64,000 nt of DNA from Prevotella sp. (lineage in GTDB: Bacteria > Bacteroidota > Bacteroidia > Bacteroidales > Bacteroidaceae). The stretch lies in NCBI GenBank assembly GCA_017469955.1, contig JAFUFJ010000015.1:32362-96361 (forward strand). The letters run 5' to 3'. The first letter of the stretch is position 1; each line of letters opens with the position of its first letter. Positions 14,617-32,771 of the stretch are shown here, piece after piece. The notes below the pieces were generated by a model, which saw only the letters and a program-made list of their open reading frames with translations, made no database searches and was not told the DNA's origin. A program made the translations under genes and the position numbers.

Positions 14617-14638
14617 AACCACTCACCCCGAATTTGAT

Positions 14639-17963: not shown

Positions 17964-18019
17964 AAGCCGGACGGAAGGACGGGAGTCTCCATAGGCTTCC
18001 GGCCTTCAACAAGCAGCAG

Positions 18020-18055: not shown

Positions 18056-18136
18056 GCATGCGGAATCCTGAGGAGCCACGGGCTTTCCCGGCCACTTTTC
18101 CAAGGCATGAAAACGCAAAGCCGGAGGATGCTTCTT

Positions 18137-18243
18137 GAGAAAGCTTAGGATTCTGCCCGAGAAGTCATAGAGTTATGGCCGAGAAAGCTATGGGTTATCA
18201 ACAAGAAAGCTGCCCTTTCTCACCTTGAAAGGGCAGCTTTCTC
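18137..18243. repeat. Family A 107-bp modular repeat, copy 2
   Basis: The spacing is the same: GAGAA at 1, 23 and 45; TTATC ending at 63; TTCTC ending at 85 and 107. Unlike copy 1, the outer arms do not pair with each other. Instead the right half folds on itself: AGAAAGCTGCCCTTTC pairs with GAAAGGGCAGCTTTCT, a 16-bp stem. It lies between the convergent fumarase and dnaX genes. Confidence 0.9.
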
Positions 18244-18380
18244 AACGGCAACATGAAACCTTCTTGCCATACGTCCCAAGACTTCTGCTGGCGAAAGGGC
18301 ACGGATGCGGTCTGGAGACATTGCCGAGACCGTGGAACATCCGGCCTCTCTATGCGGTGTTTGCTGAAGGAACAGCCTCG

Positions 18381-20162
18381 TCAGGTCACCTCAAAATCAA
18401 GCGTCGCGGCCAGTTTGTCAATGGCAGGATTGCTTTTTCTCAGCAATCTCAGCACCTCAGGCTTGGTGAGAACCGGCTTGATCTCCTCGCGGTCGGCAAG
18501 CCTTATGCGGAAATCTATCTGCCCATTGTGCAACTCTTTTGCCATCGTTGCACGTATGCGCCCTTTGATTTGACTGACCTCTTCCATCAGCATCTCGTTG
18601 TCGCACACCAGCTCTATGACCGGAAATCCGACGATATGGGGGGTCATGTTCTTGAGCCTTGACGCCAAGCCGCGTGTCTTGTCTTTGCCTTGCATACGTA
18701 TGCACATGGCACGCCACGCTACCATAAGTTCTTCTTCACTGAATGCCGCGTTCTCCTCTTTGTTCTCTATTTTCTCCTCGACCTGAGAGACCTGCTGCTC
18801 AGCATCCCCGCGGATATTAGCGAAAGAGAATGTCAGTCGGGACAGCAATGCACCTGCTCTTCCCGATGAAACAGAGGACTGCCTGACGTCAGACGTCGCC
18901 ATTGAGGGGCGGTTCTCAGCCGGTTCCGATGCTTTCGGAAGGGTCTGAGACGTGGATTTCTGTTCGGATTGTGCCACCTGCAGGGCACCGTTCTGCCGAA
19001 CATTCATAAGTTTGTGGAACAGGGATTTCAATCGTTTAGGGCTACGCCCCGCACCTGCCCCGTCGTCGTCTTTCTGCGTAATCTGCGCCACTTGTATGAG
19101 CGTCAGCTCTACAAGCAGACGCTTATTGTTCGACTGACGGTAGTTAATGTCGCACTGATTCATAATCTTCAGCGCCTGATAGAGGAACTTCACGGGGCAT
19201 CGCTGCGCCTGTTGCTGGTAGCGTTCGCGCTGCTGCTGGCTCACTTCGAGCAAGGGAAGCGTCTGCGAATCCTTAGCCATCAGCACGTTGCGCACGTGGC
19301 TTGCCAGCCCAAGAACAAGGTTTCCTCCGTCGAAACCGCGCCCGATGAGCTGGTTGAGCAGCACCATGATGTCGCTCACTTTGTTTTCTAACGCCAGGTC
19401 GATGATGCTGAAATAGTTGTCAGTATCTAAGACATTAAGGTCTTCAATGACCTTCTGGTAGGTGATGTTCCCTTGGCAGAATGAGGCAGCTTGGTCAAAA
19501 ATGCTGAGCGCGTCGCGCATGCCTCCGTCGGCCTTCTCTGCGATAACGGCCAGCGCCTCGTCCTCATACTGGATGTTTTCCTTCTGCGCCACCATCTTTA
19601 AATGCTCAATGGTGTCCTGCACTGTCATGCGCTCAAAGTCATAGATCTGGCAGCGCGAAATGATGGTCGGAAGAATCTTGTGTTTCTCGGTCGTGGCCAA
19701 AATGAAGATGACATGTGCCGGAGGCTCCTCAAGAGTCTTGAGGAAAGCATTGAAAGCCGACGACGAAAGCATGTGTACTTCGTCAATGATGAAGACCTTG
19801 TATTTTCCCACTTGAGGCGGAATGCGCGTCTGTTCCATGAGGGCCTTGATATTCTCAACGGAGTTGTTCGACGCCGCATCAAGCTCAAAAATGTTGTAAG
19901 AGCGCTGCTCATTGAAGGCCTGACAGCTCTCACAATGGTTGCAAGCTTCGCCGTCCTCAGTAGGCGTCAGGCAGTTGATGGCCTTGGCAAAGATGCGCGC
20001 ACAGGTGGTCTTACCCACACCTCGGGGCCCGCAAAAGAGGTAGGCATGGGCAAGTTTGCCGCTCTTGACCGCATTCTTCAGCGTTGTTGTCAGAGCCGAC
20101 TGTCCCACCACCGAGTCAAACGACATCGGCCTGTACTTGCGTGCTGATACGATATATTCCAT
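18381..20162 (-). CDS. dnaX: DNA polymerase III subunit gamma/tau
   Basis: The 593-residue clamp-loader ATPase loads the sliding clamp at replication forks. The start MEYIVSARKYRPMSFDSVVGQ (ATG 20162) is chosen because AGGAA lies just upstream and a full promoter precedes it. The AAA+ core has Walker A GPRGVGKTTCARIFAKA, the zinc-binding module CNHCESC, Walker B FIIDEVHMLS and the sensor segment LATTEKHKILPTIISRCQ. Domain III (about 225-365) follows, and the C-terminal region is variable with a Q/E-rich linker. No A6G-type slippery site for programmed frameshifting is visible, so a single product is expected. It transcribes convergently with fumarase and divergently from the DivIC-like gene. 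Confidence 0.97.
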   Translation of the reverse strand: MEYIVSARKYRPMSFDSVVGQSALTTTLKNAVKSGKLAHAYLFCGPRGVGKTTCARIFAKAINCLTPTEDGEACNHCESCQAFNEQRSYNIFELDAASNNSVENIKALMEQTRIPPQVGKYKVFIIDEVHMLSSSAFNAFLKTLEEPPAHVIFILATTEKHKILPTIISRCQIYDFERMTVQDTIEHLKMVAQKENIQYEDEALAVIAEKADGGMRDALSIFDQAASFCQGNITYQKVIEDLNVLDTDNYFSIIDLALENKVSDIMVLLNQLIGRGFDGGNLVLGLASHVRNVLMAKDSQTLPLLEVSQQQRERYQQQAQRCPVKFLYQALKIMNQCDINYRQSNNKRLLVELTLIQVAQITQKDDDGAGAGRSPKRLKSLFHKLMNVRQNGALQVAQSEQKSTSQTLPKASEPAENRPSMATSDVRQSSVSSGRAGALLSRLTFSFANIRGDAEQQVSQVEEKIENKEENAAFSEEELMVAWRAMCIRMQGKDKTRGLASRLKNMTPHIVGFPVIELVCDNEMLMEEVSQIKGRIRATMAKELHNGQIDFRIRLADREEIKPVLTKPEVLRLLRKSNPAIDKLAATLDFEVT

Positions 20163-20195
20163 TTCCTGATGATTGAAAGGTTGAAAACTTGTTTG

Positions 20196-20227
20196 CAAAG
20201 GTAGTGATTAACAAGCAAAACGCCAAA
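20196..20227 (-). promoter_or_regulatory. Full -33/-7 promoter of dnaX
   Basis: On the minus strand TTTG (20224-20227) is followed after 20 bp by TACCTTTG (20196-20203), both matching consensus. The dnaX ATG is 33 bp downstream. Confidence 0.75.
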
Positions 20228-20310
20228 GAAAAATTTTGAAGTTTTTGGCCCGATTCGCTAAATAACATTAATAATAAGATACGCCAGACACGTCTTTCAA
20301 GCTTTTTTCA

Positions 20311-20318
20311 TACCTTTG
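20311..20318 (+). promoter_or_regulatory. -7 box upstream of the DivIC-like gene
   Basis: TACCTTTG, 23 bp before the ATG at 20342. No good -33 TTTG at the usual distance. It faces away from the dnaX promoter. Confidence 0.55.
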
Positions 20319-20341
20319 CCGTAAACTTAAGACATACAGAT

Positions 20342-20650
20342 ATGAGCCGAATCCATTCCTTCTGGAAATTCCTTGGACACTATAAATACCTTATAGCCAT
20401 CGTCGTGGGAGTCGCCATCGTTGGCTTCCTCGACGAAAACAGCTATACCAAGCGCATACAACAGAAAGCACAAATCGACGAGCTTAGAGAGGAAATCGCC
20501 ATATACGACAAGAGAAACAAAGCCGACAGCCTGCTGCTCGACAAACTGGAACGCGACCCGAAAGCCATCGAAAAAGTAGCCCGCGAACGCTATTTCATGA
20601 AAAGCGACGACGAAGACATCTTCGTTCTCAGCGACGAAATACGCAACTAA
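20342..20650 (+). CDS. DivIC/FtsB-like septum formation protein
   Basis: This 102-residue protein has a short cytoplasmic N-terminus, one membrane helix (about 14-30, YLIAIVVGVAIVGFL) and a coiled coil (about 36-65, QQKAQIDELREEIAIYDKR). It ends in ERDPKAIEKVARERYFMKSDDEDIF, the conserved tail of the FtsB/DivIC family. Such proteins join the FtsQ-FtsL complex at the division site. Size and layout fit the family exactly. It begins a plus-strand pair with the following membrane protein, 12 bp away. Confidence 0.88.
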   Translation: MSRIHSFWKFLGHYKYLIAIVVGVAIVGFLDENSYTKRIQQKAQIDELREEIAIYDKRNKADSLLLDKLERDPKAIEKVARERYFMKSDDEDIFVLSDEIRN

Positions 20651-20662
20651 TTCAGAAAAACA

Positions 20663-21079
20663 ATGAAACAACTCAATAAGACCCAGACCGTCATCTTCAT
20701 GCTCGGAGGACTGTTGATGGTCATCGGAGCCGGCGCTTACGCCCTGCTTTTCAACCCAAAAGCCTCTGCATGGATATTCCTCATCGGAGCAATCCTCTTC
20801 ACACTCATGCAGGCCATGCAGATTTATGAAGGACAAAGCTTGGTCATCAAACGCCTCAAACGCATACAGTCTCTGGCAAACATCTGCTTCATCATCGCCG
20901 CACTGCTCATGGTCAACGACGCCTTCCAGCTCCTTTTACCCCTCTTCAAGGGCAACTATATCACCTACGTCGACTACCTTTTAAACAAATGGGTCATACT
21001 ACTCCTTATCGCAGCCATATTGGAACTATACACCACTCATCGCATATCCTCAGAGCTTGAAAAAGACAAAAAACGCTAA
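20663..21079 (+). CDS. Four-helix integral membrane protein, function unknown
   Basis: The 138-residue protein has four likely membrane helices at about 10-30, 37-54, 70-90 and 108-124, short loops and a charged C-terminal tail (SSELEKDKKR). It looks like a conserved hypothetical membrane protein of Bacteroidales. It follows the DivIC-like gene by 12 bp and shares its operon, which hints at an envelope or division role, but nothing in the sequence shows an active site. Confidence 0.75.
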   Translation: MKQLNKTQTVIFMLGGLLMVIGAGAYALLFNPKASAWIFLIGAILFTLMQAMQIYEGQSLVIKRLKRIQSLANICFIIAALLMVNDAFQLLLPLFKGNYITYVDYLLNKWVILLLIAAILELYTTHRISSELEKDKKR

Positions 21080-21114
21080 AACAGCGCAAAAATACATTAA
21101 ATACCATAAAAAAG

Positions 21115-21146
21115 TTTCCGTGCTCCGATAATTGATAGTATCTTTG
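21115..21146 (+). promoter_or_regulatory. -33/-7 promoter of the DUF4369 lipoprotein gene
   Basis: TTTC (21115-21118, one change from TTTG), 20 bp, then TATCTTTG (21139-21146). The ATG is 39 bp downstream. Confidence 0.65.
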
Positions 21147-21184
21147 CTCATAACAAACAGTAACAACAACGACATCTCAACGAA

Positions 21185-21967
21185 ATGAAAAAGGCATTAT
21201 TCATACTTGCCACCCTTATTGCGCTCACGTCTTGTGGCAGCAAATATAGCATACAAGGATCGTCAAACGTCCCGACATTAGACGGGCATAAGCTCTATCT
21301 AAAGGTCCTTGACGAGGATAATCTGAAGAACATTGACTCTTGCGAAGTTATCCATGGCCAGTTTCATTTCAAAGGATCCATCGACAGTCCGACGATGGCT
21401 CACCTCTATATGGATGAGGCAAATATCATGCCTCTCGTACTGGAGGACGGCGAGATTCAAATCAAAATCGACCTGACACAGCAAGCAGTCAGTGGCACAC
21501 CTCTCAACGATGAGCTCTTTTCTTTCCTCAATCGTTACAATCAAATCTTAAGCGAGCGGGGCGAATTGGTACACAAACACGACCAGGCTATCATGGATGG
21601 AAGCAACATGGAGGTAGTGAATGCAGCACTGATTGTTGAGGAACGGCAACTTGCCATACGAGAAGACAGCCTCGTAACCAATTTCGTTACGAGCAACTTT
21701 GATAATGTTCTCGGCCCAGGAGTCTTCTTCATGATGACCGTCAGCAACCAATATCCACAGCTTGATCCTTGGATAGAAGACATCATGAGCAAGGCAACTG
21801 ACTCCTTTAAAAACGATCCTTATGTGAAGGATTACTACGAGAAGGCACAGGAAAACGAAAAAATAATGAACGGCTTGCGCGACGTATCTCCCCAAGCAAC
21901 GGCAGACCCGTCAGCCACGCCTGCCCCGACTGCCACCCCAAATGATTTAGCAAAACCACAGCCATGA
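21185..21967 (+). CDS. DUF4369-domain lipoprotein
   Basis: The 260-residue lipoprotein has lipobox LTSC near Cys17 (MKKALFILATLIALTSCGSK). Residues about 20-110 match the DUF4369 beta-sandwich found at the N-terminus of many Bacteroidota thiol-disulfide proteins (GHKLYLKVLDEDNLKNIDSCEVIHGQFHFKGSI). No thioredoxin domain or CxxC follows. Instead a helical segment leads to a low-complexity tail rich in Ala, Thr and Pro (from about 235, SATPAPTATPNDL). Its TGA overlaps the ATG of dihydroorotase (ATGA), so the two are translationally coupled. Function unknown; localisation to the cell envelope is secure. Confidence 0.85.
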   Translation: MKKALFILATLIALTSCGSKYSIQGSSNVPTLDGHKLYLKVLDEDNLKNIDSCEVIHGQFHFKGSIDSPTMAHLYMDEANIMPLVLEDGEIQIKIDLTQQAVSGTPLNDELFSFLNRYNQILSERGELVHKHDQAIMDGSNMEVVNAALIVEERQLAIREDSLVTNFVTSNFDNVLGPGVFFMMTVSNQYPQLDPWIEDIMSKATDSFKNDPYVKDYYEKAQENEKIMNGLRDVSPQATADPSATPAPTATPNDLAKPQP

Positions 21968-23388
21968 CGACCCTTATACGTGGCGGACAGATTGTAAATG
22001 AAGGACATGTCTTTGATGGAAGTATCATTATCGAGAACGATCGCATCAAGGACATTATCCCTTGCACCGAAGACACATGCTCACTCCGTGGAACCTACGA
22101 TACCATTGTAGATGCCACGGAGTGTTTTGTTTTGCCTGGAATCATCGACTCTCACGTGCATTTTCGTGAGCCAGGACTCACTCATAAGGCATGCATCGAG
22201 AGCGAAAGCAGGGCTGCTGCCTATGGCGGAGTTACTTCTTACATGGAAATGCCCAACACGATTCCGCAGACAACCACGATTGAAGCCCTGAAGGAAAAGC
22301 ACGAACTGGCGCGAAAGTCAAGTCATGTCAACTACTCATTCTTCTTCGGAGCGACCAACGACAACAGCGAAGCTTTCCATGAACTGCCCCATAACCTCTA
22401 CAGAAGCCATGGCATACAGGTCCCTGGGGTAAAACTCTTCATGGGCTCTTCTACGGGAAACATGCTGGTCGACGAGCAGGATTCCTTACGTAAAGTGTTC
22501 AGGGCTGCTGCCGTCAACCGGCTGATGATTGTGGCACATTGCGAAGACACGGCGACCATCCAGCACAACCTTCAGGCCGTGAAAGCTGCCCAAGGTGATG
22601 ATCCCGACGTACGTTTCCACCCCATCATCCGCGACGAGGAAGCTTGTCTGAAGTCCACACAATTGGCCATTTCTCTTGCAGAAAAGCACGATGTCCGTCT
22701 GCATATAGCCCATGTTTCGACATGGGGGGAGCTCATGCTTCTTGCCCCTGCTCCGGGAGGATACTGCCCATCCTCATACATAACGGCCGAGATTTGCGTG
22801 CCTCATCTGCTCTTCTCGTCAGACGACTATGCCACGAAAGGCACGCTGATCAAGTGCAATCCTGCCATTAAGTCGGCCTCTGAGCGCGACGCTTTGCGCC
22901 GTCATATCGGCATTGCAACTACCATTGCAACCGATCATGCACCGCATCTTCTGAGTGAGAAGCAGGGCGGTTGCACCAGGGCTGCGTCAGGCATGCCGAT
23001 GGTGCAGTTCTCACTTCCGGCCATGCTTGGCCTCGTCGACGAGGGTGTTCTCTCGATAGAAGAGATGGTGAAGAAGATGTGTCACGCCCCTGCCCGACTG
23101 TTCAACATCAGCGAAAGAGGCTTCCTTCGCAAAGGCTATAAGGCCGACATTACCGTCGTCAGGCCAGACTCGCCCTGGACAGTCACGAGAGATTGCATAC
23201 AAAGCCGTTGCCAATGGAGCCCGCTTGAAGGCCATACGTTCAGATGGAGGGTCGAGCAGACACTGTGTAACGGACGGCTGGTCTACGACCGAACCCGCAC
23301 AGTTCCGTTCGACGACAGCTGCCGTGGCGAAGCGCTTTCGTTCCGATCATGGCCCGAAGGCAACAGCCTTGACGGCATAACCCGTTAG
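21964..23388 (+). CDS. pyrC: Dihydroorotase
   Basis: The 474-residue class I-type dihydroorotase of pyrimidine biosynthesis closes carbamoyl aspartate to dihydroorotate. The zinc motif HVHFREPG (His-x-His, with substrate-binding Arg) follows GIIDSHVHFREPGLTHKA at about 60-77. GGVTSYMEMPNT, the third metal region around AHVSTWGE, and the catalytic ATDHAPH (about 320) are all present. It is somewhat longer than many members, mainly at the C-terminus. It overlaps the DUF4369 lipoprotein gene by 4 bp, an odd partner for a pyrimidine enzyme. Another cyclic amidohydrolase such as allantoinase is a less likely alternative. Confidence 0.9.
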   Translation: MTTLIRGGQIVNEGHVFDGSIIIENDRIKDIIPCTEDTCSLRGTYDTIVDATECFVLPGIIDSHVHFREPGLTHKACIESESRAAAYGGVTSYMEMPNTIPQTTTIEALKEKHELARKSSHVNYSFFFGATNDNSEAFHELPHNLYRSHGIQVPGVKLFMGSSTGNMLVDEQDSLRKVFRAAAVNRLMIVAHCEDTATIQHNLQAVKAAQGDDPDVRFHPIIRDEEACLKSTQLAISLAEKHDVRLHIAHVSTWGELMLLAPAPGGYCPSSYITAEICVPHLLFSSDDYATKGTLIKCNPAIKSASERDALRRHIGIATTIATDHAPHLLSEKQGGCTRAASGMPMVQFSLPAMLGLVDEGVLSIEEMVKKMCHAPARLFNISERGFLRKGYKADITVVRPDSPWTVTRDCIQSRCQWSPLEGHTFRWRVEQTLCNGRLVYDRTRTVPFDDSCRGEALSFRSWPEGNSLDGITR

Positions 23389-23438
23389 AGAAACCGAAGT
23401 AAATCAGCCTGTCACAATCCGTCAATCTTCGTCAAGTT

Positions 23439-24602
23439 TTGATACATCGCATCGTCATACCGCTATTGTTGCTCATCTTTCTGCCCGACCTTTACAGAGC
23501 ATGGCGCAACTCCCGACGCAAGAAAAAACGCCTCGGACGGCAGCTTTTACGGTGGGTTCCCTCACTGCTTATGGGCACTGCCACCATTCTTCTGGCCAGC
23601 ACTGACGGCTTTATACCCGAAGAACGGTGCTGGATTGACCTGTATCTGTGGGTGTTGGGACTCTATTTCATTCCGCGTTTCGGCTACAGACTGTGTGTCT
23701 TTCTGGGGCGGATCGTCAAGGCTTCTACCCACAGCCGGAGCAACTGGGGACGGCCGATCGGGCTGCTTTTGGCCCTTATACTGATTGTATGCTTCGTCAT
23801 CGGGATGACCATCGGCCCGCGCCAACTCAAGGAACGCCGCATAGACATCAACTTCAACGACCTGCCATCGGCCTTCGACGGCTATACGATTGTGCTCTGT
23901 TCAGACCTGCATCTGGGGTCACAGTCAGAGACATTCGTCAGCAAACTCGTCGAGACTGTCAACCGGCAGCGGGCCGACATGATATGCTTTGCGGGCGACA
24001 TCCAGAACACTACTCCGCAGGAGCTCTACCCCTATGTCTCGACCTTGCGCACGCTTCAGGCCCGCGACGGGGTCTACTCTGTGCTTGGCAATCACGACTA
24101 CAGCTACTACATGGCGCAGGGCGACCCTTCGATATGCATGGCCAATGAACGTGAAACCATCTCGCTCGAACGACAAATGGGCTGGAAAGTGCTGCTCAAC
24201 GGTCATGAAGTCGTCAGCCGAAACGGCCAGCATGTCAACATTGCCGGCGAGGAATGCTACAGTAAAAAGGCAGGGCAGCCTTCGAAATCAGACCTCGGAA
24301 AGACGCTCGAAGGCATCGGAGAAGGCGAGTTCACCATCCTCTTGCAGCACAATCCCGCCGTCTGGAACGACAGCATCCTGACGCATTCAGACGTACAACT
24401 GACCCTTTCCGGCCACACCCACGGCGGACAAATGTCGCTGATGGGGCTGCGTCCTACGATGAAACAATATCGGGAAGACCGCGGATTCTACGGACAAGGC
24501 GACCAGAAACTCTACGTCACCAGCGGGCTGGGAGGCCTCATCAGCTTCAGATTCGCCATGCCTCCCGAGATTGTCGTCATCACTCTCCACCGGAAAGGCT
24601 GA
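23439..24602 (+). CDS. Membrane-anchored metallophosphoesterase, TTG start
   Basis: The protein is 387 residues when started at TTG 23439. No ATG occurs until residue 45, and an in-frame TAA at 23400 limits upstream choices to TTG or a CTG; the TTG gives a complete hydrophobic N-terminal helix (IVIPLLLLIFLPDLY). Further helices lie at about 44-54, 65-80 and 105-122. The calcineurin-like catalytic domain follows from about 145 with all metal motifs: SDLHLGS, AGDIQ, LGNHDYSY and SGHTHGGQ. It resembles YkuE/YaeI-type enzymes, some of which act on lipid-linked substrates such as UDP-diacylglucosamine. It lies 50 bp after pyrC and 37 bp before the acyltransferase gene. Confidence 0.88.
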   Translation: MIHRIVIPLLLLIFLPDLYRAWRNSRRKKKRLGRQLLRWVPSLLMGTATILLASTDGFIPEERCWIDLYLWVLGLYFIPRFGYRLCVFLGRIVKASTHSRSNWGRPIGLLLALILIVCFVIGMTIGPRQLKERRIDINFNDLPSAFDGYTIVLCSDLHLGSQSETFVSKLVETVNRQRADMICFAGDIQNTTPQELYPYVSTLRTLQARDGVYSVLGNHDYSYYMAQGDPSICMANERETISLERQMGWKVLLNGHEVVSRNGQHVNIAGEECYSKKAGQPSKSDLGKTLEGIGEGEFTILLQHNPAVWNDSILTHSDVQLTLSGHTHGGQMSLMGLRPTMKQYREDRGFYGQGDQKLYVTSGLGGLISFRFAMPPEIVVITLHRKG

Positions 24603-24639
24603 GCCTTCACCGGCGCCATCATCCTTCAACCTCCGCACT

Positions 24640-25401
24640 ATGGCTACCTTTATCTATCGCATCTACCAACTGTTCATCGCAGCACCACTCATCCTTCTGG
24701 CCACGATTCTTACCGCCATCACCACCATCGTGGGCTGCACTCTCGGCGACGGACACTTCTGGGGCTACTATCCCGGACGTCTCTGGTCGCAGTTCATCGT
24801 CCGCATTCTGCTGCTGCCTGTCCGCGTGGAAGGGCGCGAACGCCTTGAAAAGAGCCAGAGCTACGTATTCGTAGCCAACCATCAGGGGGCTTTCGACATC
24901 TTTCTCATCTACGGTTTCCTCGGAAGAAACTTCAAGTGGATGATGAAGCAGAGCCTGCGTCGCATCCCACTTGTGGGACGAGCCTGCCAGGCAGCCCACC
25001 ACATTTTCGTCGACAAGCGTGGACCAAGCAAGGTGCGACAGACCTACGACGAGGCCCGCAAGACGCTGCAAGGAGGCATGTCGCTCGTAGTGTTTCCCGA
25101 GGGATCGCGCACCTTCACGGGCCACATGGGCAAGTTTCGCCGGGGAGCATTCATGCTTGCGAGCGACTTGCAGCTGCCCGTTGTGCCCCTGACCATCAAC
25201 GGTTCGTTCCAGGTGAAACCGCGCACTCGCGACATCTACTGGGTGTTCCGCCATCCGCTATCGCTCACCATCCATGAGCCTTTGACGCCCTCTGGCGACG
25301 CCGAAGCCGACGTACAACGTTTTCTCGACGAGTCATACTCGGTCGTGATGTCGGCTCTTCCGCCTCGTCTTCAGGGCTATGTTGAGAACCCCGACCAGTA
25401 G
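24640..25401 (+). CDS. PlsC-type 1-acyl-glycerol-3-phosphate acyltransferase
   Basis: The 253-residue acyltransferase starts at MATFIYRIYQLF (ATG 24640); the frame extends upstream only into the end of the phosphoesterase gene. An N-terminal membrane helix (about 8-30) is followed by the catalytic NHQGAFDIF (N-H-x4-D) at about 87-95 and the substrate motif FPEGSRT at about 150-156, then VVPLTINGSF. The enzyme acylates lysophosphatidic acid to phosphatidic acid at the inner membrane. A lipid-A or ornithine-lipid acyltransferase of the same fold is possible. It ends a plus-strand run and converges with the starch operon. Confidence 0.9.
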   Translation: MATFIYRIYQLFIAAPLILLATILTAITTIVGCTLGDGHFWGYYPGRLWSQFIVRILLLPVRVEGRERLEKSQSYVFVANHQGAFDIFLIYGFLGRNFKWMMKQSLRRIPLVGRACQAAHHIFVDKRGPSKVRQTYDEARKTLQGGMSLVVFPEGSRTFTGHMGKFRRGAFMLASDLQLPVVPLTINGSFQVKPRTRDIYWVFRHPLSLTIHEPLTPSGDAEADVQRFLDESYSVVMSALPPRLQGYVENPDQ

Positions 25402-25453
25402 TTTACGCCCGCTCCCCTGCCCTTTCCGGCCGGGAAGAAGCAGCAGACAGTTT

Positions 25454-25560
25454 GAGAAAGCTAAGGGTTTAGCCCGAGAAGTCATAGCATTCTGGATGAG
25501 AAACCTATCCTTTCTCGACAATAACTCTATGACTTCTCGGGCTAAACCCTTAGCTTTCTC
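25454..25560. repeat. Family A 107-bp modular repeat, copy 3
   Basis: This is the clearest copy: all three GAGAA (1, 23, 45) and all three TTCTC (ending 63, 85, 107) are exact. Arms 25454-25487 and 25527-25560 are perfectly complementary over 34 bp around a 39-bp centre. It lies between the convergent acyltransferase and SusA-like genes. Confidence 0.93.
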
Positions 25561-25635
25561 CGACACGACCCTTTCCGCTCCCGTGGAGAGCCTTCATCGT
25601 CCTGCTGGCCAATCGCTTGCCGTCCGACATAAAGA

Positions 25636-25696
25636 CACCGCCTTTTCCGGTCGCAAGGAGCACTGTCGGTCAGTGCTCCGGCCAGAAAAGGCGGTG
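25636..25696. terminator. Two-tier hairpin between convergent genes
   Basis: An outer 12-bp stem, CACCGCCTTTTC (25636-25647) with GAAAAGGCGGTG (25685-25696), encloses an inner 9-bp stem, GGAGCACTG (25657-25665) with CAGTGCTCC (25671-25679), with a 5-base loop. There is no long T-run on either side. Position between the plus acyltransferase and the minus SusA-like gene suggests a shared transcription stop, but this is inference. No gene is seen in 25402-25733. Confidence 0.55.
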
Positions 25697-25733
25697 GTGT
25701 GTCTTGCCTGCGAGCCTCAGCCCGCAAAGCGTT

Positions 25734-27734
25734 TCAGAACTCAAGCACGAGCGTTGCGCGCGGTTCCAGTTCGACGTTCGTACCTATAGCGTAGGTGTTG
25801 TCCGTGAGAATGTCGGTGGCCGTGGCCTGCCCGTCTATGAGTTCAGCATAGCGACTCCAGTCGAGCTCGGCAGGCTGGCTCGTTCCGTTGAGCACGGTCA
25901 TCACCGTTTTACCCTCGTGACGGCGCGCAATCACATAGACACCCTTCCACGGACAGAACTGCGTCTGCCGGCCTTTCACGATGACATCATTGCCCTGTCT
26001 CCAGTGGAGGAGCGTGGAAAGCCACGCGAACATCTGCTGCTCGTCGGCCGTACGGCCCTCGGCTGTGAAGGCGTTATGTGTGTCACCATTGAATCCACCG
26101 GGGAAATCCTTGCGCACATAGCCGTCGGTCACCTCCTTGGTTCCGTTCATCAACACCTCAGTTCCATAGTAAAGCTGCGGTATACGCTGCATGGTCAGCA
26201 GCAAGGCCAGTGCCTGTTTCAGCGAAGCAACGTCTTGCCCGTTGCCGAGAAAGCGGTCGGTATCGTGATTCTCTATGAAGGCCATCACGTGAGCTGGATC
26301 CTCATACAGGTAGTCATAGACCAGCGAATTGTAGATGCGATTGAAGCCATGCCACCATCCATCGGTCTCTTCATAGCGCGCCTGGTTGAGCTTGTCGAAG
26401 AAAGAGAAGTCCATTACCGTCTTCAAATAGCTGTTTTCAGCCTGCGAACCCTTAGCCTCGGCGCCCTTCGATGCAGGCTTTTCGGCTATGCGCGAGTCCT
26501 TTTGCCAGGCAGCAGTGTAGGCAGGCTCGGTCACCCAGGTCTCGCCTACGGTGTTGAAGTTGGGATATTCCTCGCCGAGAACCTTCATCCAATAGGCCAT
26601 GCCCGTGCGGTCGGCATAGGGATAAGTGTCCATGCGAATGCCGTCAATGCCCACGGTTTCGATCCACCATTCTGAGTTTTGAATCAGATAACGCATCACA
26701 TAGGGATTGCGTTGGTTAAGGTCTGGCATCGTCGGGACAAACCATCCGTCAACAGTTTCACCGAGGTCTATCTGCGACGCATATGGGTCAAGTACGGGAG
26801 TAAGCTTATAAGAGGTCTGGCGATAGAGGTCGCTCATGCGGGTGACACCATCAGTGTGGCGGATCTCAATCATATGGTCTTCGGTCTGGTTTGCTGGGTC
26901 AAGCCACTCAGAATTGTTAAGCCAGTCCTTCGAAGGAAGGTCGGAAACCCACGGATGTTCAAAACCGCAATGGTTGAAAATCATGTCCATCACCACCTTC
27001 AACCCATGTGCATGTGCATCGTCAACAAGACGTCTGTAGTCGTCGTTGGTGCCGAAACGCGGGTCCACACGATAGTAGTCAGTCGTGGCATAGCCATGAT
27101 AGGTGCTCTGACCATGGGCATTGTCGGGCGAGTTGTTCTCCAATACCGGCGTAAACCAGAGCGCCGTCACGCCGAGCTCGTTGAAATAGTCGAGGTGCTG
27201 ACGAATGCCTTCAAGGTCGCCCCCATGACGAAGCGAGGGCTGAGAACGGTCTTCCACGTAGGTGTTCATGCCCTCAATCTGGGCAGGATGGTCGGCCGAC
27301 TGGGCAAAACGGTCGGGCATCAACATGTAGAGCACGTCGGCATTTGTAAATCCCAGACGCTCAGAGCCGGCCATCTCGCGTTCCTTCAGCTGATACTTCA
27401 CGATGGTCTTATCCTCACCACGCTTAAAGGCAATGGGCAGTTCGCCTGCCTTTACGCCCTTCAAGTTCAGGTAGACAAGCAGATAGTTGGGCGAGTCGAG
27501 ACGCACGAGCGAGTCGATCTTCGCACCTTTCACCGACACTTCCGCCTCGCGAATGTTCTCACCGTAGACCATCAGCTGCACCGTCGGGTCTTTCATTCCG
27601 ACAAACCAATCGGTAGGATCGATGCGTTTCACTTCCACGGCACCATTGCCTTCGTCCTCGAAGTCGGCCCCGCCTGGATTGCATGACGTCAACATCATGC
27701 CTGCTATGCTAAGCAGCAAAAAGATTTTCTTCAT
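25734..27734 (-). CDS. GH13 alpha-amylase family lipoprotein (SusA/neopullulanase-like)
   Basis: The 666-residue lipoprotein has lipobox LTSC (MKKIFLLLSIAGMMLTSCNP), followed by an acid-rich stretch (GGADFEDEGN) of the sort linked to surface export in Bacteroidota. An N-terminal beta-sandwich typical of cyclomaltodextrinases (about 35-120) precedes the GH13 barrel. GH13 region I is VVMDMIFNHCG; the nucleophile lies in GIRMDTYPY, the acid/base in VGETWV and the third acid in FIENHDTDRF. A beta-rich C-terminal domain ends VELEPRATLVLEF. It should cleave pullulan or maltodextrins to short oligosaccharides, as SusA does. It is the last gene of the starch operon, 2 bp after the pullulanase gene. 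No SusC/SusD pair is nearby. Confidence 0.93.
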   Translation of the reverse strand: MKKIFLLLSIAGMMLTSCNPGGADFEDEGNGAVEVKRIDPTDWFVGMKDPTVQLMVYGENIREAEVSVKGAKIDSLVRLDSPNYLLVYLNLKGVKAGELPIAFKRGEDKTIVKYQLKEREMAGSERLGFTNADVLYMLMPDRFAQSADHPAQIEGMNTYVEDRSQPSLRHGGDLEGIRQHLDYFNELGVTALWFTPVLENNSPDNAHGQSTYHGYATTDYYRVDPRFGTNDDYRRLVDDAHAHGLKVVMDMIFNHCGFEHPWVSDLPSKDWLNNSEWLDPANQTEDHMIEIRHTDGVTRMSDLYRQTSYKLTPVLDPYASQIDLGETVDGWFVPTMPDLNQRNPYVMRYLIQNSEWWIETVGIDGIRMDTYPYADRTGMAYWMKVLGEEYPNFNTVGETWVTEPAYTAAWQKDSRIAEKPASKGAEAKGSQAENSYLKTVMDFSFFDKLNQARYEETDGWWHGFNRIYNSLVYDYLYEDPAHVMAFIENHDTDRFLGNGQDVASLKQALALLLTMQRIPQLYYGTEVLMNGTKEVTDGYVRKDFPGGFNGDTHNAFTAEGRTADEQQMFAWLSTLLHWRQGNDVIVKGRQTQFCPWKGVYVIARRHEGKTVMTVLNGTSQPAELDWSRYAELIDGQATATDILTDNTYAIGTNVELEPRATLVLEF

Positions 27735-27736
27735 AT

Positions 27737-29671
27737 TTAGTTGTGAATGATTAATGCAGATTGCGGACTGACAGCTATCTCTCCTCCGGCAATTTCCTCA
27801 ATACCCTCTTCGTTGATGATGCCCTCACAGCAGACAACCGTCCACTGTCCTTCCGGTATTTCGAGCTTCTTGGCCGTCTTGTTGGCATTCAACACGACGA
27901 TGATGTCCTTCCACTCATCACCGCCGGCATGGTCTTTCAGCCGGAAAGCCACCATGCAAGACTCCTTGACAGGCAGGAATTCCAAGTGTTTTCTCACGAG
28001 GTCTGCCTTGCCCAAACGGAAGGCTTCATGGCGATAGCGCAAGCGGATGAGATTGCGATAGTAGTCGAAAACCTGCGGATAGCGTTCCAGATTAGTCCAG
28101 TCAAGACGGTTGATACTGTCAGGAGAATTATATGAATTATGCACACCTTTCTTGTCTCTAAGCATCTCTTCCCCACTGAGCATGAACGGAACTCCTTGCG
28201 AAGTAAAGACGGCAGTCTGAGCCAACAGGTCAAGACGAATCAGCTCTTCTTCAGATATACCTGGCATTTCTGTCCGCAAACGGTCAACCAGGCACATGTC
28301 GTCATGGCAACTTACGTAGCTGATCATTTGTGTAGGCTCCTCAGCCCAAGGTTCTTTCGAGTAGTTCACCCTCGAGTAATCAACTTGAGGATGATCGATC
28401 ATTCCTGCGATGCCTGCTTTGAGACTTTCCTCAGAACCCTCGACACTTGCGAGGAAGGCTCCTTTGGTATCATCGTCAAAAGGACCGCGCAAAGCATCCC
28501 TGATGTCATCCGAAAATGCTGCTATTCCCGGCATTTTCTTGATATGATTCTTCGTGGCCAATCGCTCAGAAGGGTAAGCACACTGGCCGGCACTCCAGCC
28601 CTCTCCATAGATGAACACTCGACGGTCGATGCTGTGAATGACCTTCTCGATGATGTTCATTGTTTCGATATCATGCACGCCCATCAGGTCAAACCTGAAA
28701 CCATCGATATGGTATTCCTTCAACCAATACTTCAGACTTTCCACAAGAAAGAGCCTCATCATGTCACGTTCTGATGCCGTTTCGTTGCCACATCCTGAGC
28801 CATTGCTCCAAGTTCCGTCAGCATTCTTCCTGTAAAAATAGCCTGGATAGAGTTTCTGGAAGTTGCTTCCTGCAAGATCAAACGTATGATTGTAGACCAC
28901 ATCGAGTATCACTCCGATGCCGGCATCATGCAAAGCTTGCACCATTTGCTTAAATTCCCTGATACGAACGACGGGATCATAGGGGCTGGTTGAATAGGAA
29001 CCTTCTGGAACATTGTAGTTCAAGGGATCGTAGCCCCAGTTGTATTGCGGCGTGTCCAGCTTGGTTTCATCGATTGATGCAAAGTCAAACGACGGCAGGA
29101 TGTGCACCATATTCACCCCAAGAGCCTTGAGATGTCCGATGGCTTTGGGCTCAGTGAGGGCAAGATATTTGCCTTTATTTTCGATTCCAGATGAGGGATC
29201 AATGGAAAAGTCGCGATGATGCAGCTCGTAAATCACGAGGTTGGCCGGCGACGAATAGTCTGGTTTTGCATCTTCTAACCATCCTTTCGGGTCGGTATCA
29301 TTCATGTCAATAATGGCACCACGCTGTCCATTCACACTCACAGCTCTTGCAAAAATGCCCGGCGTCTCGTTCCATTTCCTGTTAGTTCCCGTGACGTCAA
29401 AGGTGTAGAACTTTCCCTTAAGATCGCCTTCTACACGTGCTCTCCAAATATAAGGAGTGGCTTTGTCGGTCGTCATCTTGATGGTTTTATAGGGTTTTCC
29501 GCCCTCACCCTGCTCGTAAAGTCTCAGCAACACTCGCTTTGCTTTCGCAGGTGCAAAGACCTGAAACGTTGTTGCTTCTTTCCTGTATGTGGTCTCCGGT
29601 CCCTGTGCATGGGCAGCAGTTCCGCCCATTATTGTGACGATTGTTGTCAAGAGAAGTGTCTTCAGTTTCAT
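27737..29671 (-). CDS. pulA: Type I pullulanase, secreted
   Basis: The 644-residue enzyme cleaves alpha-1,6 branches in pullulan, amylopectin or glycogen. A signal peptide ends near AHAQ (about 23). A CBM48-like N-terminal domain (about 30-120, TFQVFAPAKAKRVLLRLY) is followed by the pullulanase-specific motif YNWGYDPLNYNVPEGSYS (about 218-235) and the GH13 regions VVYNHT, GFRFDLMGVHD (nucleophile Asp), YGEGW (acid/base Glu) and YVSCHDD. The signal peptide indicates export, unlike many cytoplasmic PulA homologues. It lies 57 bp after the glucanotransferase gene and 2 bp before the SusA-like gene. Confidence 0.94.
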   Translation of the reverse strand: MKLKTLLLTTIVTIMGGTAAHAQGPETTYRKEATTFQVFAPAKAKRVLLRLYEQGEGGKPYKTIKMTTDKATPYIWRARVEGDLKGKFYTFDVTGTNRKWNETPGIFARAVSVNGQRGAIIDMNDTDPKGWLEDAKPDYSSPANLVIYELHHRDFSIDPSSGIENKGKYLALTEPKAIGHLKALGVNMVHILPSFDFASIDETKLDTPQYNWGYDPLNYNVPEGSYSTSPYDPVVRIREFKQMVQALHDAGIGVILDVVYNHTFDLAGSNFQKLYPGYFYRKNADGTWSNGSGCGNETASERDMMRLFLVESLKYWLKEYHIDGFRFDLMGVHDIETMNIIEKVIHSIDRRVFIYGEGWSAGQCAYPSERLATKNHIKKMPGIAAFSDDIRDALRGPFDDDTKGAFLASVEGSEESLKAGIAGMIDHPQVDYSRVNYSKEPWAEEPTQMISYVSCHDDMCLVDRLRTEMPGISEEELIRLDLLAQTAVFTSQGVPFMLSGEEMLRDKKGVHNSYNSPDSINRLDWTNLERYPQVFDYYRNLIRLRYRHEAFRLGKADLVRKHLEFLPVKESCMVAFRLKDHAGGDEWKDIIVVLNANKTAKKLEIPEGQWTVVCCEGIINEEGIEEIAGGEIAVSPQSALIIHN

Positions 29672-29728
29672 GTCTGTTGTTGTTTTTAAGGGGTGAATGC
29701 TTCGGTTTCTTTCGGTGATCCGTCATTT

Positions 29729-32377
29729 CTATCGCCCACTGTCGGCAATGAGTTTGCTGACAGTGGCCGTGAAGTCTTTGTTCTGCATCAAGTCTTCTAT
29801 GTTGACATGCATGCGGTAGCGCCAGTAGTGTCTGGGGTTGGCGGGGATGTTGATGCGTTCGGCATCGGCATCTTCCAGCCGCAAGTGTTCGTCGATGGCC
29901 AGCCAATCCTGAATGGAGAGGATGCATAGCATGGACGGAGACTTCAGATGCTGCTCGAGAATGGTGCGTGCCAACCATCCTGGAAGTGGGTGTGGTGCAG
30001 CACCTTGCTGTCCGAGCATCGAGTTATAGTAGTCTTGTGTGCGGCTAAAGTCTTCGTCCCACCACTGTCTTAGGGTAGGCATGTCGTGGCTTGAGATGGT
30101 GCTTACCGACCTGTATGGGTTGCGTTCAAGGTAGCCAAAGCGCACTTTCGGGTCTTTCGGCATTGACTGTATTTCGAGAGAAAGGATGCGAAGCTCCTGC
30201 ATAACCCATGCCACACAATCGGGTACCATGCCCAGATCTTCGGCACAAACGAGCATTCTCGTGGCCTGGACGAGGCGTGGAAGTTTCTTCATTGCTTCAC
30301 GATACCAGAACTGATTGTTGCGCCTGTAGAAGTAGTCGTTGTAGAGTTTGTTGAATGCTGCCTTGTCAGAGTCCCACAGAGCTTCGTACATAAAGTCTTG
30401 CTGGGCTGAGATTCGTGGGTGGAACTTGTTGGCATCCTTACGGTCACGCACAAAGAGTACGTTGCTCACCAACGCCATAAGTCCGTCACGGAAGTCGGAT
30501 GGTTCGAGTGTCTTTTCTATCTTTCTCTGTGTGTCGTATTCTGGTTTCATCCGATAGATGTCGTCGTGCCAGTGGTTGACAAAGTGGGCTTTAACCTCTT
30601 CTTTGCGGTCGCCGAAGATGCGATCGAGCGTCCATTCGGCGATGAAAGGCTGTGTAAAGAGCTCTTCCTGGAAGTGTAAGCCGTAGGCTTCTATCTCTTC
30701 TCTTGTCATTCCGAGTGCCGGAGAGAACTGTCCTGTGAGCCCATAGACACTGTCAATGGGTATCTCCCAGATGCGAAAGAATCCCAAAACATGGTCTATA
30801 CGATAGGCATCGAAGTAGCGGGACATGTTCTGAAAACGTCGTACCCACCACTGACAGCCGTCCTTAATCATCTCGTCCCAGTTGTAGGTTGGGAAGCCCC
30901 AATTCTGCCCGTTGGCAGAGAAGTCGTCGGGAGGAGCACCTGCTTGGCCGTTCATGTTGAAGTATTTAGGTTCCATCCAGACGTCGCAGCCGTGACGACT
31001 GACACCGATTGGTATGTCTCCTTTTAAGACTACATTGCGTAAGCGGGCATAAGCGTGGGCGGTTTGCATCTGGGTGTCGAGGACGAACTGCACGAAGTAG
31101 TAGAACGACACCTCTTTATATATACGCGTGCGCGTATTGGTCAATGTCTTTCTGTCGGCCTCTTGCCACTGAGGATGGCCGTCGAGCTGCCCCTTGTCTC
31201 TCAGATAACAGTAGTAGGCATATGGCACAAGCCACTGTTGGGTCTCGCTGAAGAACTGTTTGAATTGCGCCGAAGCCATCATGTGACGGCCTTCTTGCTC
31301 GAAGAGCAGGCGCAGCATTTCGTCCTTGGCCTGATTGACTTTTTCGTAGTCGATCTGCGGAAGGTCGTTGAGCTGCTTGCGCAATGTCTCGTATTTCTTG
31401 CGGAGATTCTCGTCTTTCAGCTTTGGAAGCTGGCGGAAATCGACGTACTGTGGATGCAATGCAAAGATGCTTATGCAGGAATAGGGGTAAGAGTCGGTCC
31501 ATGTGTGTGTGGTGGTGGTGTCGTTGATGGGCAGCACTTGCAGCACACGCTGGCCTGTTTGTGCGACATAGTCGATCATGGTTTTCAGGTCGCCGAAGTC
31601 GCCTACTCCGAAACTTCCCTTTGTGCGAAGCGAGAATACGGGCACGAGTGTGCCTGCAAGACGTGTGTCGGCAACGGAGAAACGGGGCTGACACAGGTCG
31701 CAGACCGTCACTTCTCCTGCCTGCATCGGCTGCGGAACGAAGGCGCGGTTGGGTCCTTCCTCCCATACGATGCCGGCCGATCGGATGATGAACTTATATT
31801 CTGTTGCGTGTGCTTCGAATGCTTCGGCGGGCAGGTCGACTACCCATTCGTTGTAGTTGTGTTCGGTCATTGGCAGAGCCTTGGCGGGGTTCCACAGGCC
31901 AAGCCGTTGGCTGCTGCCCACGATGGCAAGCTGTTCGCCCTTGCGAAGCTGGGGAGCACGCACGCGAAGCCTCACGGTCTTGGCCGAGGAGACTGCCGGA
32001 AACGTCTTCGGGAGGCGGTTGTTCAGGCAGCCTGTGAAGGCCGAACTGTAGCTGTAGGCATCGTCGGGTATGTCAGACCACTGGTCGAAGACCACGTAAC
32101 GGACGGCCTTTGCTACGTTGAGTTCCAACCGATGCATCACGGTTGTCCATTCGTGTCTGCGCTCCGTTCCATCCCTGTCAACGCTGTAGGAATAGTCGAT
32201 GACGGCCGGTTCCTGGCCCTTTTTCAGGTTCATTTCATAGCGCCAATGCTCACCGTCGTCGGTAGTCATGCGATAAGGGGTTGTCAAGGCGCTGCCGTCA
32301 GAGGCTTTTCCTGCGGCATTCAGAACCAGCTCTTCGCCGAAGACGGTCCTGTAGGCTATGTTGAATATTATTTTCAT
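29729..32377 (-). CDS. malQ: 4-alpha-glucanotransferase (GH77) with tandem CBM20
   Basis: The 882-residue amylomaltase lacks a signal peptide and is cytoplasmic. Two starch-binding CBM20-like domains lie at the N-terminus (about 1-95, and about 130-225 with RVRAPQLRKGEQLAIVGSS and LGLWNPAKALPM), a layout known from plant DPE2. The GH77 domain (about 250-870) has SPYS-like DSYPYSCISIFALHP, FSANGQNWGFPTYNW, YRIDHVLGFFRIWEIP (nucleophile Asp), CAEDLGMVPDCV (acid/base Glu) and SSHDMPTLRQWW. It transfers glucan segments from maltose or maltodextrin to acceptor glucans. It is the first gene of the starch operon. Confidence 0.95.
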   Translation of the reverse strand: MKIIFNIAYRTVFGEELVLNAAGKASDGSALTTPYRMTTDDGEHWRYEMNLKKGQEPAVIDYSYSVDRDGTERRHEWTTVMHRLELNVAKAVRYVVFDQWSDIPDDAYSYSSAFTGCLNNRLPKTFPAVSSAKTVRLRVRAPQLRKGEQLAIVGSSQRLGLWNPAKALPMTEHNYNEWVVDLPAEAFEAHATEYKFIIRSAGIVWEEGPNRAFVPQPMQAGEVTVCDLCQPRFSVADTRLAGTLVPVFSLRTKGSFGVGDFGDLKTMIDYVAQTGQRVLQVLPINDTTTTHTWTDSYPYSCISIFALHPQYVDFRQLPKLKDENLRKKYETLRKQLNDLPQIDYEKVNQAKDEMLRLLFEQEGRHMMASAQFKQFFSETQQWLVPYAYYCYLRDKGQLDGHPQWQEADRKTLTNTRTRIYKEVSFYYFVQFVLDTQMQTAHAYARLRNVVLKGDIPIGVSRHGCDVWMEPKYFNMNGQAGAPPDDFSANGQNWGFPTYNWDEMIKDGCQWWVRRFQNMSRYFDAYRIDHVLGFFRIWEIPIDSVYGLTGQFSPALGMTREEIEAYGLHFQEELFTQPFIAEWTLDRIFGDRKEEVKAHFVNHWHDDIYRMKPEYDTQRKIEKTLEPSDFRDGLMALVSNVLFVRDRKDANKFHPRISAQQDFMYEALWDSDKAAFNKLYNDYFYRRNNQFWYREAMKKLPRLVQATRMLVCAEDLGMVPDCVAWVMQELRILSLEIQSMPKDPKVRFGYLERNPYRSVSTISSHDMPTLRQWWDEDFSRTQDYYNSMLGQQGAAPHPLPGWLARTILEQHLKSPSMLCILSIQDWLAIDEHLRLEDADAERINIPANPRHYWRYRMHVNIEDLMQNKDFTATVSKLIADSGR

Positions 32378-32405
32378 CGGGTCTTTTAGGTTTTTAATTT
32401 GGTGG

Positions 32406-32413
32406 TAAAGGTA
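32406..32413 (-). promoter_or_regulatory. Probable -7 box of the starch operon
   Basis: The minus strand reads TACCTTTA, one change from TAnnTTTG, 28 bp before the malQ ATG. No clear -33 box. The match is weak and rests on position. Confidence 0.35.
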
Positions 32414-32497
32414 CTCAGAAAACGGCTAACTTCGGATGTCGTCTGAGGCAAAAAGGGCAAAAAGATGTGCAAACGTTTGCACCTTTCCCGTCAGACT

Positions 32498-32638
32498 CCC
32501 CTGCCCTTCATTTTGAGAAAGCTTATGTTTCAGCATGAGAAGTCATAACTTTCACGTCGAGAACTCTATCCTTTCTGCCCCAGAACCCATAGACTTCTCA
32601 TGCTGAAACATAAGCTTTCTCAAAATGAAGGGCAGGGG
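32498..32638. repeat. Family A repeat, copy 4, inside a 47-bp perfect inverted repeat
   Basis: The 107-bp core is 32515-32621 (GAGAA at 1, 23 and 45; TTCTG ending at 63; TTCTC ending at 85 and 107). Complementarity extends 17 bp beyond each end, giving two perfect 47-bp arms (32498-32544 and 32592-32638) around a 47-bp centre. It lies between divergent genes (malQ and the mannosyltransferase), so it cannot be a transcription terminator for either. Nothing else but promoters is seen in 32378-32771. Confidence 0.93.
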
Positions 32639-32739
32639 ATGAGGGGCAAAGGGGTGAGAGATGAGCGCAAAAAGGCTTTCCATGCTGTTAATAATCATGA
32701 AATTTTAAGGTGAAAAATTCGTTTTCAAGTTGTTTTCGT

Positions 32740-32747
32740 TAACTTTG
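32740..32747 (+). promoter_or_regulatory. -7 box of the mannosyltransferase-mfd pair
   Basis: TAACTTTG, 24 bp before the ATG at 32772. A TTCG at 32718-32721 is a poor -33 candidate, 18 bp upstream. Confidence 0.55.
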
Positions 32748-32771
32748 CATTTGACTAAGGAGGCGAAGACC

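What the first reader, a model, noticed from the sequence alone, without database searches (positions are those of the whole stretch)
25454..25560. Family A: intergenic element of exactly 107 bp with six pentamers on a fixed 22-bp grid
Five copies (6351-6457, 18137-18243, 25454-25560, 32515-32621, 48262-48368) are each 107 bp long and share one plan: GAGAA-N17-GAGAA-N17-GAGAA-N9-TTCTC-N17-TTCTC-N17-TTCTC. The 22-bp step is about two helical turns, so all sites would face one side of DNA. Only 4 of 30 pentamers deviate, each by one base, while spacers vary widely. No insertion or deletion occurs in any copy. I know of no described element with this design. A DNA-binding protein array, a nucleoid or recombination site, or a non-autonomous mobile element are all possible.
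Basis: seen in the sequence. Interest (0 to 1): 0.92.

Follow-up and report, generated by a model that had tools for sequence, protein, structure and literature searches.

The report
Helix-locked 22-bp intergenic repeat arrays
The gaps between this bacterium's genes hold about two hundred short mirror-symmetric repeat arrays spaced exactly two DNA turns apart, in step with an 11-letter rhythm written through the neighbouring genes, which suggests the chromosome is laid on an ordered protein scaffold that has yet to be identified.

Summary
The 107-bp element is five 22-bp units (5x22-3), each an approximate dyad: pentamer-N9-reverse pentamer plus a 3-bp linker. The own genome has 203 pattern places per strand with <=3 mismatches; reversed control 0. 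Other families share the 22-bp grid: 62 of 143 sampled non-coding segments carry such arrays, against 0-3 at nine other periods.

Beyond the finding: resident DNA, genes included, carries an AA/TT-versus-GC wave of 11.028 bp (95% CI 11.024-11.032), about 90% of it in synonymous codon choice, phase-coherent for kilobases. All 40 A elements and 27 other arrays tested are in register with it. A GC-poor mobilizable island has almost no wave and no arrays.

Sampled genus relatives often have 22-bp arrays with other words; 7 of 25 also show a wave. Of 14 other-family genomes none shows either clearly.

Best reading: two-turn binding arrays for a dimeric, helically ordered nucleoid protein, not identified. 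That arrays nucleate the order is inferred: phase continuity supports it, wave strength does not.

The parts
25454..25560 (.). Family A array, five 22-bp dyad units, convergent gap between an acyltransferase and a cyclomaltodextrinase-type gene
   Evidence: 30/30 letters; flank phase 146 deg
6351..6457 (.). Family A array, five units
   Evidence: flank phase 154 deg
18137..18243 (.). Family A array, convergent gap between fumarase-type and dnaX-type genes
   Evidence: flank phase -166 deg
32515..32621 (.). Family A array, divergent gap; its inverted arms run 18 bp beyond the 107 bp on each side (32497-32544 / 32592-32639)
   Evidence: flank phase 178 deg
48262..48368 (.). Family A array, five units
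   Evidence: flank phase 161 deg
38113..38219 (.). Family B array: one A-type half unit, three CATAC/GTATG units, degenerate fifth unit
   Evidence: flank phase 164 deg
41069..41175 (.). Composite array A-B-B-B-A, again 107 bp
   Evidence: flank phase 166 deg
53088..53216 (.). Family B array, five CATAC/GTATG-type units followed by an A-type unit
   Evidence: flank phase -174 deg
63068..63152 (.). Family B array, four units
   Evidence: flank phase -173 deg
1..64000 (.). Wave of AA/TT with GC-type steps in antiphase, period about 11.03 bp, through genes and gaps of the window
   Evidence: (window z 43.6)

Best explanation
The elements are strong binding arrays for a dimeric DNA-binding (nucleoid) protein that takes one 22-bp, two-turn dyad per dimer and packs side by side on one face of the helix. 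The half-site families (GAGAA, CATAC, GCAAA) are versions of one architecture. The protein, or a fibre that it starts, holds DNA at about 11.03 bp per turn; weaker phase-matched contacts through neighbouring genes favour AA/TT/AT/TA on one face and GC-type steps on the other, and this preference has written a kilobase-coherent wave into synonymous codon positions. Arrays in the gaps, free of coding constraint, hold or set the phase. Shown from sequence: the architecture, several families on one grid, the register with the wave, the synonymous origin, the near-absence from an acquired island, whole-unit turnover. Inferred: that a protein does it, that it is dimeric, that it forms an ordered fibre, and that arrays nucleate it.
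For: Blind period scan singles out 22 bp (62 of 143 segments; 3 at 21, 0 at the eight others). 40 of 40 A elements have flanks (100-1500 bp) in one phase sector; pooled R .162 against .027, maximum .058, in 60 random-anchor sets; coding DNA alone 300-1500 bp away: 36 of 40 within 60 deg of 165 deg, R .232 against maximum .067 in 30 sets. 27 of 27 non-A arrays locked too. AA/TT/AT/TA at 180 deg, GC/GG/CC/CG at 0 deg; amplitude .128 falls to .011-.013 when synonymous codons are shuffled. 22-bp AA/TT alternation, as expected of a two-fold site, R .82 in the core.21 at 54-120 bp and .11 at 120-200 bp. Units avoid self-complementary words. Phase continuity across arrays 60/65 against 42/60 array-free gaps and 220/300 coding points (p .002 and .0006). 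Arrays without a wave in several genus members, so arrays are not by-products of it.
Against: No protein identified; HU (PF00216) and HU-HIG (PF18291) copy numbers do not follow the wave in 16 genomes. Wave strength hardly depends on distance to the nearest array outside islands (Spearman -.066, p .049), so nucleation is not shown. The advantage in phase continuity shrinks with a wider gap (46/64, 33/60, 186/300 at 300 bp). In G003 only 6 of 10 arrays, and in G026 7 of 9, lie in the expected half circle. No significant mutual phasing between neighbouring arrays. Phase is not clearly conserved at orthologous coding windows.
Confidence: 0.45

Rival explanations
1. A REP/BIME- or BrickBuilt-like intergenic minisatellite: units multiply and convert among copies, and only changes that keep the helical phase are tolerated, so arrays end up in register with a wave that has another cause.
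For: Tiny word alphabet suggests exchange among units; one whole 22-bp unit gained or lost between sister species; preference for convergent gaps (18 of 22, against 8 of 21 divergent) resembles REP elements (recalled); BrickBuilt is a 23-nt tandem repeat in gaps of another Bacteroidales genome (PMC4596501).
Against: No sharp ends; no Y1 transposase PF01797 in the own genome (75.6% complete); A-type copies not found in 288 other genomes; grid without off-grid spacings; several unrelated half-site families keep the same dyad grid.
Confidence: 0.22
2. A supercoiling architecture: arrays are strong gyrase or plectoneme-apex sites, and the 11.03-bp wave is the sequence fitted to underwound, writhed DNA.
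For: Period above 10.5 bp, commonly interpreted as negative supercoiling (PMC4132750, passages); dyad symmetry; convergent gaps preferred, where positive supercoils gather (the gyrase link is recalled).
Against: Grid extends at least about 110 bp beyond each side of the core, more than the roughly 140 bp that gyrase wraps (recalled); different half-site families; wedge model shows the elements no more curved than shuffles (recalled parameters); E. coli stretches show no such signal (100 kb).
Confidence: 0.15
3. Regulatory arrays: families A, B and C are operators of paralogous transcription factors that control hundreds of genes; the wave is unrelated.
For: Dyad sites, several specificities.
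Against: Divergent gaps, which hold promoters for both sides, are the poorest (8 of 21) and convergent gaps, without promoters of the flanking genes, the richest (18 of 22); register with the kilobase wave is unexplained.
Confidence: 0.06
4. A mutational imprint: ordered DNA (on protein or membrane) is damaged or repaired with 11-bp period, writing the wave without selection.
For: The wave sits mostly at synonymous sites and is nearly missing from an acquired island.
Against: Does not by itself give exact pentamers, a tiny word alphabet or whole-unit turnover; it still needs an ordered scaffold.
Confidence: 0.07

Closest known systems
BrickBuilt MITE of Porphyromonas gingivalis (PMC4596501; abstract and section 5 read)
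   Same: Intergenic tandem repeats of about two helical turns, many dispersed copies, unit number varies.
   Different: 23-nt direct repeats with leader and tail, 19 loci, 1 to 22.8 units, indels up to 6%; here 22-bp dyads, about 200 A copies of mostly five units, no off-grid spacing, several families. Helical phasing with neighbouring DNA was not looked for in what I read.
~11-bp dinucleotide periodicity of bacterial genomes (PMC3431218, PMC4132750, PMC1242344, PMC7537859; passages read)
   Same: Period near 11 bp, present in genes, mainly at synonymous positions, strong along some whole chromosomes, lacking in prophages. PMC7537859 notes kilobase-long periodic regions in E. coli.
   Different: The autocorrelation in PMC4132750 used lags of 30-101 bp; here phase is coherent over kilobases and tied to discrete dyad arrays. 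I found no such tie in the passages read.
REP/BIME elements (recalled)
   Same: Palindromic units, many copies, gaps, preference for convergent neighbours.
   Different: REPs are hairpin-forming with a conserved sequence and RAYT transposases; here within-unit complementarity is avoided and no RAYT family match was found.
PATCs, periodic An/Tn clusters of C. elegans (search listing and start of abstract of PMC7725773; the rest recalled)
   Same: Helically phased A/T runs over long stretches (recalled).
   Different: About 10-bp period, non-coding eukaryotic DNA, no dyad arrays (recalled).

Membership tests
REP/BIME | Units form stable hairpins (self-complementary arms) | tested here: not met
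   same word in both halves 16 of 200, expected 37.7; mirror complementarity of the 107 bp below shuffled (z -2.9)
REP/BIME | RAYT / Y1 transposase in the genome | tested here: not met
   0 matches to PF01797 in the own genome (75.6% complete, so not final); family found in 5 of 14 control genomes
MITE / BrickBuilt | Defined ends with terminal inverted repeats, leader and tail | tested here: not met
   the grid fades gradually over five further units
MITE / BrickBuilt | Empty sites and target duplications between strains | not tested
   no second strain of this species held; searches compare two sister species in three gaps and show arrays in place
MITE / BrickBuilt | 23-nt unit | tested here: not met
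   62 segments at 22, 0 at 23 (one shuffled segment scored at 23)
Bacterial ~11-bp periodicity (persistent type) | AA/TT period near 11 bp along most of the chromosome, mainly synonymous, weak in acquired DNA | tested here: met
   sampled on 454 kb
Intrinsically curved DNA | Array predicted more bent than shuffled sequence | tested here: not met
   end-to-end/contour .960-.964 against .953 shuffled; wedge parameters recalled
Known structured RNA (Rfam 15) | Match at gathering threshold | tested here: not met
   0 matches in the window
Nucleoid-protein binding array | A protein shown to bind the array | not testable with these tools
   needs pull-down, footprinting or ChIP

The most novel reading that the evidence does not exclude
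This bacterial chromosome is packaged as a helically ordered nucleoprotein fibre at 11.03 bp per turn, nucleated and phase-set by intergenic two-turn dyad arrays whose sequence families co-evolve with their binding proteins, while genes carry the matching rotational code in their synonymous codons: a bacterial chromatin code with dedicated positioning elements.
Probability: 0.33. Interest if true: 0.96.

Novelty: categorically new. Interest (0 to 1): 0.87.

Why it matters
Why bacterial DNA has an ~11-bp periodicity is an open question in the papers that I saw (supercoiling, packaging and protein contacts are all proposed). Here the signal is very strong, has a measurable phase, and comes with discrete intergenic elements in register, so cause and effect become testable: find the binding protein, or remove or shift one element. 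If a protein fibre is responsible, some bacteria have a rotational chromatin code written in sequence, and part of their synonymous codon choice is set by packaging.

Tried and rejected
RNA hairpin or sRNA: within-unit complementarity avoided, no Rfam match in the window. RAYT: none found. Viruses: 0 exact matches in viral contigs. The one hit in genome contigs (L059, GC 0.66) is, by inspection, mainly an 11-bp simple repeat, not a homologue (the tool may leave out the own species). HU and HU-HIG copy number: no relation to the wave. Phase conserved between species: coherence .35 with G016 orthologues, against .28-.57 at control frequencies; windows within 60 deg 21 of 47 (G016), 35 of 60 (G026), 28 of 52 (G003), 30 of 63 (G024), 2 of 7 (G017), a third being chance. 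Arrays as local sources of wave strength: the fall from 8.9 to 4.5 came mostly from islands. Mutual phasing of neighbouring arrays: not significant. Intrinsic curvature: not seen. A regular expression for chains of family C units found none; C was seen in the lag scan. Simple lag-22 identity in the gap after dnaX flagged 3 of 30 loci and missed the own array, so I replaced it by the inverted-array scan. Palindromicity of the whole 107 bp is marked at 25454 and 32515 but not general.

Rows dropped: 8 of 48 elements scoring 23-24/30 were left out; onward use 40 copies scoring >=25. Gene calls in scripts are crude longest-ORF calls (100-200 aa thresholds). In one search, four of the loci (L036, L037, L038, L060) and the stretch L058 were fetched because they match the pattern; without them 12, not 17, segments score at period 22, against 7 at 21.

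Full report
WHAT IS THERE. The five copies are as described: 26 of 30 pentamers exact, four off by one base; 29-30 of 30 letters, against at most 19 in three random redraws. In the own genome (2.26 Mb, 22 contigs, 75.6% complete) the pattern with up to three mismatches has 203 places per strand and its reversed control none (shifted frames count separately). In the 454 kb that I sampled (window, one whole contig, 80 kb of another) 40 non-overlapping copies have at least 25 of 30 letters.

BETTER ANATOMY. 107 = 5x22-3. A unit is pentamer, 3-base word, 3-base middle, 3-base word, reverse pentamer, then a 3-base linker. Units 1-3 mostly carry GAGAA on the left and units 3-5 TTCTC on the right; the other half-sites keep mainly AA or TT. 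AA and TT thus alternate every 11 bp. Words are few: AGC, GTC, AGG, CCC, ACC, CTC make 367 of 400 in 40 copies, and units avoid the same word on both halves (16 of 200, expected 37.7), which speaks against hairpins. Same-strand pentamer spacings are 22 (120 times), 44 (63), 66 (22), then 9 and 33 (9 each). The left run starts a unit early in 4 of 40 copies and the right run passes unit five in 7 of 40. Outside the core the grid goes on: TT on grid in 50, 53, 58, 33 and 31% of flank units 1-5, against 7-10% on average at other phases.

OTHER FAMILIES. With family A masked, non-coding DNA still shows strong 22-bp autocorrelation. Family B has CATAC...GTATG units; 12 of the 18 B arrays listed have an A-type unit next to them by my reading. 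The window copy at 41069-41175 is again 107 bp: A, B, B, B, A. Family C has GCAAA...TTTGC-type units, seen in the lag scan. A blind scan for inverted arrays over ten periods found 62 of 143 segments at 22, 3 at 21 and none at the other eight; in the shuffled set none at 22 and one at 23.

THE WAVE. Coding DNA of this genome has an AA/TT period of 11.0 bp, 36 times the median spectral amplitude, still visible at lag 396. Measured from the centres of A elements, AA/TT keep phase outward on both sides: R .29 at 54-400 bp.20 at 1-1.5 kb.06 at 3-5 kb.05 at 6-8 kb; pooled .162 over 60-3000 bp against .027 (maximum .058) in 60 random-anchor sets; 40 of 40 elements lie between 117 and -139 deg. In coding DNA alone, 300-1500 bp away, 36 of 40 lie within 60 deg of 165 deg, pooled R .232 against .028 (maximum .067 in 30 sets); the period is 11.028 bp (95% CI 11.024-11.032). 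The 27 other arrays tested are locked as well (flanks 100-1200 bp, non-coding included), and so are 9 of 9 arrays in the window. AA, TT, AT and TA lie near 180 deg, GC, GG, CC and CG near 0 deg. Shuffling synonymous codons within genes, proteins kept, lowers the amplitude from .128 to .011-.013; shuffling codon order leaves less than .001. The 22-bp alternation of AA and TT, strong in the core (R .82), is .21 at 54-120 bp.11 at 120-200 bp and only .04-.06 farther out.

RESIDENT VERSUS ACQUIRED DNA. In 5-kb bins the wave power is mostly 6-12. It is lowest in C6 260-280 kb: 2.5, 1.1, 1.9, 3.0, with no array. That stretch has GC 0.41-0.42, holds a tRNA gene, and genes with DNA methylase, type III restriction and MobA-like relaxase domains (8 proteins scanned, 2 without a match). 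Two further weak, mostly array-free stretches (C6 108-120 and 128-146 kb; GC 0.49-0.50) were not annotated. So the pattern seems to be acquired with residence.

DO ARRAYS SET THE PHASE? For: phase is kept across 60 of 65 arrays, against 42 of 60 array-free gaps and 220 of 300 coding points (p .002 and .0006), though less clearly with a wider gap (46/64, 33/60, 186/300); and arrays occur where no wave is seen. Against: outside islands wave strength hardly changes with distance to the nearest array. I treat nucleation as inferred.

RELATIVES. The A pattern is not in 99 other relatives or 248 other genus members (288 distinct genomes), except for near-perfect 22-bp tandem units with other words in G056 and G213; the reversed control itself gave one hit in each of three relatives. 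Period-22 inverted arrays with other words occur in 18 of 25 genus genomes from which I had at least 11 kb (my count over; G056 was sampled because of its hits and G009 is doubtful because of 7-bp repeats). Period 21 also scores in some (7 segments). Among 14 genomes of other families only AT-rich G069 scored at 22, and it scored at most other periods too. A coherent wave appears in 7 of the 25: G016 (z 40, period 11.02), G017, G026, G046, G003, G044, G053 (z 8.7-17, best periods 10.96-11.08); the other 18 have z 4 or less, and E. coli K-12 (100 kb) z 3.3 with amplitude .008. Array phases lie in the expected half circle in G016 5 of 5, G017 7 of 7, G053 3 of 3, G044 and G046 1 of 1, G026 7 of 9, G003 6 of 10, and in 5 of 7 arrays of genomes without a clear wave (flanks include non-coding DNA). 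G003 and G026, 83-92% identical here, both carry arrays in three aligned gaps; in one, G026 has exactly one 22-bp unit more and unit words have changed. One further G003 array (score 33) has a G026 counterpart below threshold (28). Phases at orthologous coding windows are hardly conserved between own and G016 (21 of 47 within 60 deg).

PLACE. Islands excluded, arrays occur in 18 of 22 convergent, 27 of 51 co-directional and 8 of 21 divergent gaps of at least 150 bp (convergent against divergent p .005). The ten neighbours scanned in the window are metabolic, DNA polymerase III, glycosidase/glycosyltransferase or AraC-type genes.

INTERPRETATION. A protein binding as dimers, one per two turns, on one face, explains the period, the dyads, several half-site families on one architecture, whole-unit turnover and the register with a rotational code in genes. 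Static curvature does not seem to be the point (recalled parameters). The protein is unknown; HU-family copy number does not follow the wave. Main rivals: a REP- or BrickBuilt-like minisatellite, and a supercoiling architecture.

KNOWN AND NEW. About 11-bp periodicity, its mainly synonymous place and its absence from phages are published (PMC3431218, PMC4132750, PMC1242344; passages), and PMC7537859 mentions kilobase-long periodic regions in E. coli (passages). The nearest element is BrickBuilt (PMC4596501; abstract and section 5). My searches listed no description of dyad arrays locked to such a wave; the library lacks most subscription papers. The wave by itself is a known kind; arrays plus wave as a system I rate categorically new.

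Noticed in passing
L029 (own genome C6:260001-280000): GC-poor (0.41) island with a tRNA gene, DNA methylase plus type III restriction, KAP NTPase and MobA-like relaxase domains; almost no 11-bp wave and no arrays.
   Followed up: yes
L030:239-306: Rfam RF04319 (Bacteroidetes FopS sRNA family), 72.4 bits, next to the island.
   Followed up: no
L058:16568, L038:1503, L037:1502 (G056): Near-perfect tandem 22-bp palindromic units of the type GAGAAGTGCCGTTTCTC, much more uniform than the arrays of the own genome; perhaps young arrays.
   Followed up: no
L055 (G053), L053 (G049): Tandem repeats with 22-bp and shorter periods that look like runs of smaller units; possibly a simpler related repeat type.
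   Followed up: no
window 50391-50522: 66-nt direct repeat, 74% identical copies, inside the open reading frame 49944-51434 (a repetitive protein).
   Followed up: no
L059:4211-4317 (JAKAJN010000003.1, GC 0.66): Exact match to the spaced pattern in an unrelated GC-rich bacterium, mainly an 11-bp simple repeat (GAGAGAAAGCA); shows that 11-bp repeats can mimic the pattern.
   Followed up: partly
L033:72-160: A further 22-bp periodic stretch (TCCCGTTCTTTATCAGAGAAGT type) that fits none of families A, B or C.
   Followed up: no
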